Below the pieces are notes generated by a model that was not told the origin of the DNA, ran no database searches, and saw only the letters and a list, made by a program, of their open reading frames with translations. Made by a program: the position numbers and the translations under genes. From contig WGEZ01000131.1 of the NCBI GenBank assembly GCA_015492515.1, positions 1-37,470 on the forward strand: 37,470 nt of DNA, given 5' to 3'. Shown here piece after piece: positions 4,305 to 35,193 of the stretch. This DNA comes from Nitrospirota bacterium. GTDB lineage: Bacteria; Nitrospirota; Thermodesulfovibrionia; Thermodesulfovibrionales; JdFR-85. Position 1 is the first letter of the stretch. Each line of letters begins with the position of its first letter.

Positions 4305-4380
4305 TGGAGGCGGCGGCCGGATTCGAACCGGCGCATAAAGGTTTTGCAGACCTCTCCCTTAACCACTTGGGTACGCCGCC
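4305..4380 (-). tRNA. tRNA-Cys (GCA), CCA encoded
   Basis: The cloverleaf folds on the minus strand. The acceptor stem GGCGGCG pairs with CGCCGCC, the D-arm is CCC..GGG, the anticodon stem GAGGT/ACCTT encloses loop CTGCAAA with anticodon GCA, and the T-arm is GCCGG TTCGAAT CCGGC. The 3' CCA is genomically encoded (4307-4305). Confidence 0.95.
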
Positions 4381-33135: not shown

Positions 33136-33141
33136 TATAAT
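33136..33141 (+). promoter_or_regulatory. -10 element of selD
   Basis: A perfect TATAAT lies 34 nt before the selD ATG, with a weak TTGTAT 18 nt upstream. It would give a leader of about 28 nt. It is divergent to the aminotransferase promoter. Confidence 0.45.
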
Positions 33142-33175
33142 TACAGGAGACGAACCCCGTGGAGCCGACGCGCAG

Positions 33176-34189
33176 ATGGACTGGAGACTGACAGAGAGGG
33201 TGAGGGCCGCCGGCTGAGCCGGAAAGCTGGGTCCGGGAGACCTGGAGGAGATACTATCCGCCCTCACACCGCCTGAGGACAGGAGGGTCATCGTGCCGCC
33301 CGGTGACGACGCGGGTGTGTTCCTCCTCCGTGAAGGCCTCGCCCTGGTCGAGACGGTGGATGTGATCACCCCCCTTGTCAACGATCCCGTCACCTTCGGA
33401 GCGATAAGCTCCGCGAACTCACTGAGCGACGTCTACGCCATGGGAGGCGAGCCCTGTACCGCATTGGCCATCGTGGGCTACCCCTCCTGTGACTACGGAC
33501 CAGAGGTCGTGAGGCTCATACTGAGCGGGGCGACGGCCGTCCTGGAGGAGGCAGGGGTGAGGCTCATCGGCGGACACTGCTCTGAAGACCCTGAGCTCAA
33601 GTTCGGCCTCTCCGTGACGGGTACGGTGGATGAGACGAAGATACTGAGGAAGGAGGGCGCAAGGCCCGGCGACGTGCTGATCCTCACCAAGCCCATCGGC
33701 ACCGGCATCCTCACGACGTCGCTGAAGGGGGGCAAGCTGACGGAGGAGGACCTCCGGGAGGCCGTCAGGTGGATGACCACGCTCAACGCAGAGGCGGCAG
33801 GGCTCGCCGTCGAGGCCGGCGCCCATGCATGCACCGATATCACAGGGTTCGGGCTGCTGGGTCACGCGTTCAACATGGTGAGGGGATCGGAGCTGGATTT
33901 CGTCATCACCCTCGGGGACGTCCCTGTCATGGAGAGGGTGAGGGAGATGGCGACGGCGGGCATGGTCCCCGAAGGCGCCTACAACAACATGAAACACTCG
34001 GGCGGAAGGGTGGAGTTCAAGGACGGTGTTCCCGAGGAGGAGAGGCTGATACTCTTCGATCCCCAGACCTCCGGCGGTCTGCTGATATCAGCAGATGAGG
34101 GGATCTGCTCCCGGTTCGACAGGAGCGGCGTCTATGCAAAGGTGATAGGCCGGGTGGTGGAAGGCAGGGGCAGGATAGTCGTTGATTGA
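33176..34189 (+). CDS. selD: Selenide, water dikinase SelD, a selenoprotein (in-frame TGA = Sec14)
   Basis: Makes selenophosphate from selenide and ATP, the selenium donor for selenocysteyl-tRNA and selenouridine. From ATG 33176 the protein is 337 residues if TGA 33215-33217 is read as selenocysteine. The segment then reads MDWRLTERVRAAG-U-AGKLGPGDLEE, matching the SelD active site where Sec or Cys precedes the essential Lys17. PPGDDAG, ANSLSDVYAMGG, IGGHCSEDPELKFGLSVTG, DITGFGLLGH and DPQTSGGLL confirm the family. Ordinary gene callers would start at GTG 33293 and lose 39 residues including the active site. A hairpin right after the TGA fits a bacterial SECIS. Confidence 0.93.
33215..33245 (+). 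promoter_or_regulatory. Sec codon and SECIS-like hairpin in selD
   Basis: TGA 33215-33217 is followed 9 nt later by CTGGGTC (33227-33233) pairing with GACCTGG (33239-33245), 7 bp including two G-U pairs, around loop CGGGA. The loop lies about 16-20 nt from the TGA and contains consecutive Gs, as in bacterial SECIS elements bound by SelB. Confidence 0.75.
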
Positions 34190-34196
34190 ACAAGGT

Positions 34197-35120
34197 TCAC
34201 TCACTCTCGGGCAGGAGTTTCTCGTAGGGGTAGTTCTTGAGGTAGCCGAGGAACTCCTCCACGGCATGGGAGGAGACGGAGTGCTTCTGGGAGACGAGTG
34301 AGAAGTCCCTCATCATCTTCTCCTCCCTGAAGCTCAGCAGCTTCAGCGTACCGAACTTCACCTCCTTCAGTGCAGCCCATCTGGAGAGGATCGAGACACC
34401 CATGCCGCTCTCCACGGCGTGCTTGATCGCCTCCGTACTGCCCAGGACCATCGATATCTTCATGTTCTGGGTGGTGATGCCGTGTTTGGCGAAGTACTTC
34501 TCGATCACCTGCCTGGTGCCGGACCCCTCCTCCCTGAAGATGAAGGGCTCCTTGGTCAGCTCGAAGATGGAGACGTCACGCCTCTTGGCCCATGTATGCT
34601 GGGTGGGCACGATCAGACAGAGCTCGTCGTCTATGAGCTTCTCCACCTCTATCCTCTGCTTTGAGACGTCCCCCTCGACGAGCCCGAGATCTATATTCCC
34701 CGCCTTCAGCAGATCGACGATCCTCTTCGTGTTGCCCACCTGGAGGTGGATCTTTATCCTGGGACGGGTCTTTCTGAAGTCGGCTATCACCTTGGGCAGG
34801 AAGTAGTTCGCTATCGTGGTGCTCGCTCCGAGGGCGATGCTCCCCTTCACCAGGCCCGTCAGATCACCTATCTCCTTCTCCGCCTCGGCGTAGAGGCCGA
34901 GTATCTGCTTCGCGTACTTGTAGAGGAGCTCTCCGGCGGGCGTGAGGGTGACGTTGCTGCTCGAGCGGTCGAAGAGCTTGGTCTCGTAGAGTTCCTCGAG
35001 GGCCTGTATCTGCAGGCTCACCGCCGGCTGGGTGAGATGGATTATCGACGAGGCCTTCGAGAAACTCTTGGTCTCCGCTACGGTGCAGAAGACCCTCAGT
35101 TTGTGATCATCCATGGCCAT
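34197..35120 (-). CDS. LysR-family regulator, selenium-metabolism-associated type
   Basis: A 307-residue LysR-type transcriptional regulator. The N-terminal winged helix-turn-helix (KLRVFCTVAETKSFSKASSI, LTQPAVSLQIQALEE) is followed by the linker helix and a periplasmic-binding-protein-like effector domain (IALGASTTIANYFLPKVI; FREEGSGTRQVIEKYF). It resembles CysB/CbbR-like members often encoded beside sel genes. It lies tail-to-tail with selD (7 nt), which supports that role. An extended -10 TGCTATAAT (35135-35127) ends 6 nt before ATG 35120 and there is no Shine-Dalgarno. The open frame to 35138 runs through the promoter. An ATG at 35114 is also possible. Confidence 0.88.
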   Translation of the reverse strand: MAMDDHKLRVFCTVAETKSFSKASSIIHLTQPAVSLQIQALEELYETKLFDRSSSNVTLTPAGELLYKYAKQILGLYAEAEKEIGDLTGLVKGSIALGASTTIANYFLPKVIADFRKTRPRIKIHLQVGNTKRIVDLLKAGNIDLGLVEGDVSKQRIEVEKLIDDELCLIVPTQHTWAKRRDVSIFELTKEPFIFREEGSGTRQVIEKYFAKHGITTQNMKISMVLGSTEAIKHAVESGMGVSILSRWAALKEVKFGTLKLLSFREEKMMRDFSLVSQKHSVSSHAVEEFLGYLKNYPYEKLLPESE

Positions 35121-35126
35121 TAAACT

Positions 35127-35135
35127 ATTATAGCA
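35127..35135 (-). promoter_or_regulatory. Extended -10 promoter of the LysR gene
   Basis: TGC-TATAAT (35135-35127) is a perfect extended -10 in an AT-rich stretch; the -35 is poor. Initiation 7 nt downstream would coincide with the A of ATG 35120. Confidence 0.6.
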
Positions 35136-35193
35136 CAATGATAATAAATTAATAAGGAATGGTAATAGCCTGAAGGGGGTCCCGTCACGGCGG

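What the first reader, a model, noticed from the sequence alone, without database searches (positions are those of the whole stretch)
33176..33245. selD is itself a selenoprotein gene: in-frame TGA at the active site plus SECIS-like hairpin
Seen: ATG 33176, 13 sense codons, TGA 33215-33217, then an open frame to 34189 in the same phase. The TGA falls at the SelD catalytic Cys/Sec position, three residues before the essential Lys. A 7-bp hairpin with a G-containing loop starts 9 nt after the TGA. Known: SelD occurs in Cys and Sec forms. Inference: the organism reads UGA as Sec, and default annotation would truncate this enzyme and lose its active site.
Basis: partly seen in the sequence, partly recalled or inferred. 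Interest (0 to 1): 0.62.

Follow-up and report, generated by a model that had tools for sequence, protein, structure and literature searches.

The report
Selenocysteine-type SelD gene, correctly spotted
This bacterial gene makes the enzyme that activates selenium, and it almost certainly uses selenocysteine at its own active site by reading an internal "stop" codon as the 21st amino acid; this is real and deeply conserved, but it is a well-known phenomenon.

Summary
ATG 33176, 13 sense codons, TGA 33215-33217 and an open frame to a TGA stop at 34187-34189 encode full-length SelD (TIGR00476, 351.7 bits, cut-off 125). The TGA aligns with the catalytic Cys/Sec, three residues before the conserved Lys. 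The genome has selA, a tRNA-Sec with UCA anticodon, selB (split over two contigs) and a second selenoprotein gene, fdhA, with TGA in its Sec motif. All 56 SelD genes found in 61 genomes of the same order (Nitrospirota) carry TGA at this codon, as do 77 of 80 SelD loci from many phyla; the other three have TGT (Cys). The hairpin meets the published bacterial SECIS model. It is not remarkable in one sequence (z -0.5), but across the order it is far more stable than synonymous recodings of the same peptide (mean z -3.2; about 0 elsewhere in the gene). Sec-type SelD at this position was described long ago, so this is a new member of a known kind. In passing: other Sec-type selD lineages carry a second, distal constrained hairpin that the window's lineage lacks, and a selenium-associated LysR gene lies beside selD.

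The parts
33176..34189 (+). selD, selenide water dikinase (selenophosphate synthetase), 337 aa with one Sec; terminal stop is TGA 34187-34189
   Evidence: TIGR00476 351.7 bits, cut-off 125; 2yye phmmer E 3.5e-77
33215..33217 (+). in-frame TGA read as selenocysteine (Sec14, catalytic position)
   Evidence: TGA at this codon in 56/56 SelD genes of the order and 77/80 others, TGT in the remaining 3
33224..33226 (+). AAG, the conserved Lys17 three residues after Sec14
   Evidence: Alignments (Lys in 38/38)
33227..33245 (+). bacterial SECIS hairpin: 7-bp stem, 5-nt loop CGGGA at 33234-33238, 16 nt between the UGA and the loop
   Evidence: -8.4 kcal/mol; consensus structure of relatives; synonymous-recoding test; codon constraint GGT 36/36 Gly, GAC 36/36 Asp, CCG 33/38 Pro
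34197..35138 (-). convergent LysR-type regulator of the selenium-associated subfamily (LysR_Se)
   Evidence: NF040786 292.7 bits, cut-off 250; next to selD in 18 of 30 same-order loci checked, 60-86% identity in relatives

Best explanation
The gene encodes selenophosphate synthetase whose catalytic residue is selenocysteine. While translating the mRNA, the ribosome meets UGA at codon 14. SelB, carrying Sec-tRNA-Sec, binds the hairpin whose loop begins 17 nt downstream of the UGA and delivers Sec instead of letting the release factor act. The completed enzyme uses Sec14 and Lys17 to make selenophosphate from selenide and ATP, which SelA uses to charge tRNA-Sec, so the only SelD of this genome is both a producer and a consumer of Sec. 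Shown here: the reading frame, family, TGA position, machinery, conservation and RNA-level constraint. Inferred: actual Sec insertion, SelB binding and catalysis. Without Sec insertion translation would stop after 13 residues.
For: SelD family match over the whole length; active-site alignment; selA 606 bits, cut-off 268; selB in two contigs that share a 30-nt end; tRNA-Sec 71.9 bits, cut-off 47, anticodon UCA; FdhA with TGA in its Sec motif VDHCARYUHS and a GGUCU-loop hairpin; TGA at the SelD codon in 56/56 genes of the order; selA in 60/61 of those genomes; synonymous constraint on the hairpin; no second SelD in the genome, the other two hits being weak partial ones like ThiL/AIR-synthase relatives; selenium-type LysR neighbour.
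Against: The hairpin is not exceptional in the single-sequence fold, and an alternative register competes with it. Compensatory changes are few, because the peptide GPxDL fixes most paired bases. Five same-order genomes have selA but no recognisable SelD, and one has SelD but no selA; this may be due to incomplete assemblies. The ATG start is inferred. No protein data.
Confidence: 0.97

Rival explanations
1. The TGA is a mutation or a sequencing or assembly error in an otherwise Cys-type selD, which would then be a pseudogene or an artefact.
For: The window comes from a draft assembly in 148 contigs.
Against: The same TGA occurs in 56/56 SelD genes of the order and 77/80 elsewhere, with intact frames after it; a conserved RNA hairpin follows it.
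Confidence: 0.01
2. The real protein starts downstream (GTG 33293) and the TGA-containing stretch is an untranslated leader or a short regulatory ORF.
For: Standard ORF calling gives a 298-aa ORF from GTG 33293.
Against: The peptide before and after the TGA is conserved in relatives (LTEKVKAAG-U-A-A/G-K-L-G-P) and aligns with the catalytic loop of solved SelD structures. A product without it would lack the catalytic Sec/Cys and Lys; in a trypanosomatid SEPHS2 an N-terminal truncation lacking these residues does not complement SelD deficiency in E. coli (PMC7595633).
Confidence: 0.01
3. UGA is reassigned genome-wide to another amino acid, or read through non-specifically.
For: An in-frame TGA is read through.
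Against: The same gene ends at TGA 34187-34189; a complete Sec system is present; the internal TGA sits where other bacteria have Cys.
Confidence: 0.005
4. The gene is Sec-SelD, but the functional hairpin in this species is the competing register 33232-33237 with 33241-33246 (loop AGA, G second).
For: It is the minimum in the longer fold; relatives L111 and L113 fold in the same register with 7 pairs.
Against: It is paired in 75% of cells against 87% and shows no excess over shuffles. Its advantage depends partly on a second small hairpin next to the UGA that a ribosome would probably occupy (inference).
Confidence: 0.15

Closest known systems
Sec-type SelD/SPS2 of prokaryotes (Mariotti et al. 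2015, PMC4561486)
   Same: Same enzyme, same single Sec position, bacterial SECIS immediately after the UGA; that survey found Sec in 19% of detected prokaryotic SelD genes, always at this position.
   Different: Only lineage. A text search of the main paper for 'Nitrospir' found no occurrence.
Aquifex aeolicus SelD (2yye/2zod)
   Same: Closest solved structure by sequence; near-identical catalytic loop VRSSG-C-AAKVGPGDL.
   Different: The PDB chain carries Cys at this position; the window encodes UGA.
Bacterial SECIS model (review, PMC13188914)
   Same: Stem 4-16 bp (7 here), loop 3-9 nt (5), G in the first two loop positions (CGGGA), spacing 16-37 nt (16), energy <= -7.5 (-8.4).
   Different: Spacing is at the lower limit. 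Without flanking-base terms the energy is -7.1. The first and last loop bases (C, A) do not pair as in most models, whereas most relatives have C-G there.
LysR_Se subfamily (Lin et al. 2015, PMC5322559)
   Same: The gene beside selD matches NF040786, the selenium-associated LysR; the paper reports such genes next to selA/selB/selD.
   Different: Convergent with selD here and conserved through much of this order.

Membership tests
SelD (selenide, water dikinase), TIGR00476 | Whole-protein score above the curated cut-off | tested here: met
   351.7 bits against 125
SelD (selenide, water dikinase), TIGR00476 | Glycine-rich N-terminal loop with Cys/Sec and Lys three residues later | tested here: met
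   AAG-U-AGK; Lys in 38/38 relatives; alignment to 2yye and 3u0o
SelD (selenide, water dikinase), TIGR00476 | Makes selenophosphate from selenide and ATP | not testable with these tools
   Needs an enzyme assay or complementation of an E. coli selD deletion
Sec-type SelD | In-frame UGA at the catalytic codon, with Cys in other homologues | tested here: met
   TGA in 133 loci, TGT in L021, L087, L095
Sec-type SelD | Genome encodes SelA, SelB and tRNA-Sec | tested here: met
Sec-type SelD | Sec present in the protein | not testable with these tools
   Mass spectrometry or 75Se labelling required
Bacterial SECIS element | Hairpin with 4-16 bp stem, 3-9 nt loop, G in first two loop positions, 16-37 nt from the UGA, <= -7.5 kcal/mol | tested here: met
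   7 bp, CGGGA, 16 nt, -8.4 kcal/mol with dangling ends; borderline at -7.1 without them
Bacterial SECIS element | RNA-level constraint beyond the encoded peptide | tested here: met
   Mean z -3.2 in 37 genes against synonymous recodings; -0.3 to +0.4 at 14 control positions
Bacterial SECIS element | Compensatory base changes in the stem | tested here: inconclusive
   Two pairs with changes on both sides, 3 cells; the peptide fixes most bases
Bacterial SECIS element | Binding by SelB | not testable with these tools
   Needs a binding or reporter assay

The most novel reading that the evidence does not exclude
Across bacteria, Sec-type selD genes use one of two SECIS sites: a proximal hairpin (loop about 16-21 nt after the UGA, as in the window) or a distal one (loop about 33-34 nt after). 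Many lineages keep RNA constraint at both sites, so the element may have relocated through tandem-hairpin intermediates, or the proximal hairpin may have a second role such as slowing the ribosome or blocking release. The window's lineage would be the proximal-only state, and the same order also contains a distal-type SelD lineage.
Probability: 0.3. Interest if true: 0.42.

Novelty: new member of a known kind. Interest (0 to 1): 0.2.

Why it matters
Standard annotation would cut this enzyme at codon 14 or restart it without its active site, so genomes of this group could look as if they lacked a working SelD. The enzyme that supplies selenium for selenocysteine itself needs selenocysteine, and here it is the only SelD in the genome, so the loop is self-dependent. 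Both points are known from other bacteria. What is added is order-wide conservation in one Nitrospirota order and a clean RNA-level test of the SECIS.

Tried and rejected
Single-sequence folding as proof of a SECIS: not significant (z -0.51), replaced by synonymous-recoding tests. Covariation as proof: weak, because the peptide fixes the stem. Pattern scan for a promoter: none found; a TATAAT at 33136 with TTGTAT 17 nt upstream is visible by eye only. A first multiple alignment mixed strands and was discarded. Selenouridine synthase (SelU): no match, so the SeU trait is not indicated. FlpD/MvhD: one match, no internal stop. The tRNA-Cys in the window (4305-4380) matches the tRNA-Sec model below its cut-off and is not tRNA-Sec.

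Full report
Observation. The frame opens at ATG 33176, has 13 sense codons, TGA at 33215-33217, and runs on to TGA at 34187-34189. Read with TGA as a residue it is a 337-aa SelD: TIGR00476 351.7 bits against a cut-off of 125, covering profile positions 1-307 of 311. The alignment with Aquifex SelD 2yye puts the TGA on the catalytic Cys and the conserved Lys three residues later. Ordinary ORF finding gives only the 298-aa stretch from GTG 33293.

Machinery. The genome (2.19 Mb, 148 contigs, 100% complete by the tool's estimate) has selA (606 bits), a tRNA-Sec with UCA anticodon, and selB. The selB gene is cut by an assembly break: one contig holds profile positions 1-40 and another 31-575, and the two contig ends share 30 nt when one is reverse-complemented. 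A formate dehydrogenase gene has one internal TGA, at VDHCARY-U-HSATVVGLA, followed by a hairpin with loop GGUCU, which from general knowledge resembles the E. coli fdhF element. UGA therefore has a Sec meaning in this genome, while the same selD still ends on a TGA.

Conservation. In 61 genomes of the same order every SelD found (56) has exactly TGA at the aligned codon, and selA is in 60 of the 61. Of 80 further SelD loci from the GTDB collection 77 have TGA and three TGT: Halolactibacillus, a Treponema and Blautia parvula. The order belongs to Nitrospirota: locus L016 from a named Nitrospirae MAG and same-order genome G050 give identical rows. The two other weak hits in the window's genome are partial and like ThiL/AIR-synthase relatives, so the Sec form is its only SelD.

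The hairpin. The comparative test is decisive. Gly at the fifth codon after the UGA is GGT in 36 of 36 cases although GGT averages 25% of Gly codons elsewhere in these genes; Asp at the eighth is GAC in 36 of 36 (42% elsewhere); Pro at the sixth is CCG in 33 of 38 (19% elsewhere). Against random synonymous recodings the region is more stable with mean z -3.2, with 33 of 37 genes at p<=0.05, while 14 control positions in the same genes give means between -0.3 and +0.4; the window's own value is p=0.02. Rows are related, so these are not independent trials. The element meets the consensus model quoted in PMC13188914, with spacing at the lower limit and energy borderline depending on how dangling bases are counted.

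Mechanism. SelB with Sec-tRNA-Sec binds the hairpin and inserts Sec at UGA-14; the full enzyme makes selenophosphate, which SelA uses. This follows from the known bacterial Sec pathway (PMC13188914; PMC9312934). Here the sequence, machinery and RNA constraint are shown; insertion and activity are inferred.

Known or new. Sec-type SelD is long known. PMC4561486 reports that 19% of detected prokaryotic SelD genes have Sec, always in the same position, and that a bacterial SECIS is predicted in the Sec-containing ones. This gene is a new member of that kind. The neighbour at 34197-35138 is a LysR of the selenium-associated subfamily, already linked to Sec genes by PMC5322559, and it stays beside selD in 18 of 30 same-order loci checked.

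Seen in passing. Sec-type selD genes elsewhere often have a second constrained hairpin with its loop about 33-34 nt after the UGA (8-9 bp, loops GUU, GUG, GGUCU), in Bacillaceae, Tissierellia, Lachnospiraceae and in a second SelD lineage of the same order (L133, L135, L137-L141, L143-L149). The window's lineage shows no constraint there. Genes classed as distal still show constraint at the proximal site (mean z -2.5, n=49) although they were chosen for lacking a strong G-loop proximal hairpin; the values for the hairpin by which a class was chosen are biased. The three Cys-type genes show neither. One text search did not turn up an earlier description, which is weak evidence.

Noticed in passing
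L133, L135, L137-L141, L143-L149 and Bacillaceae/Tissierellia/Lachnospiraceae loci among L017-L095, 24-48 nt after the Sec UGA: A second, distal hairpin under synonymous constraint (loop 33-34 nt after the UGA) that the window's SelD lineage lacks; many of these genes also keep constraint at the proximal site.
   Followed up: partly
window 34197-35138 (-): Convergent LysR gene of the selenium-associated subfamily NF040786, beside selD in 18 of 30 same-order loci and more conserved than selD itself in the nearest relatives (about 85% against 70% identity).
   Followed up: partly
L096-L124, L131 against L125-L130 against L132-L149: SelD sequences of one order fall into several distant lineages in the tree, although all have TGA; replacement or old horizontal transfer is possible, not tested against a species tree.
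   Followed up: partly
G003, G014, G016, G035, G055; G046: Five same-order genomes (two at 98-99% completeness) have selA but no recognisable selD, and one has Sec-type selD but no selA; probably assembly gaps, not resolved.
   Followed up: partly
G000 contigs C69 and C117: selB is split by an assembly break with a shared 30-nt end.
   Followed up: yes
L153 (G000:C125): fdhA is a second selenoprotein gene of this genome, with a GGUCU-loop hairpin after its UGA.
   Followed up: partly
window 33159-33191 (+): A ten-codon ORF GTG-GAG-CCG...GAC-TGA preceded by AGGAG overlaps the selD start in another frame; probably chance.
   Followed up: no
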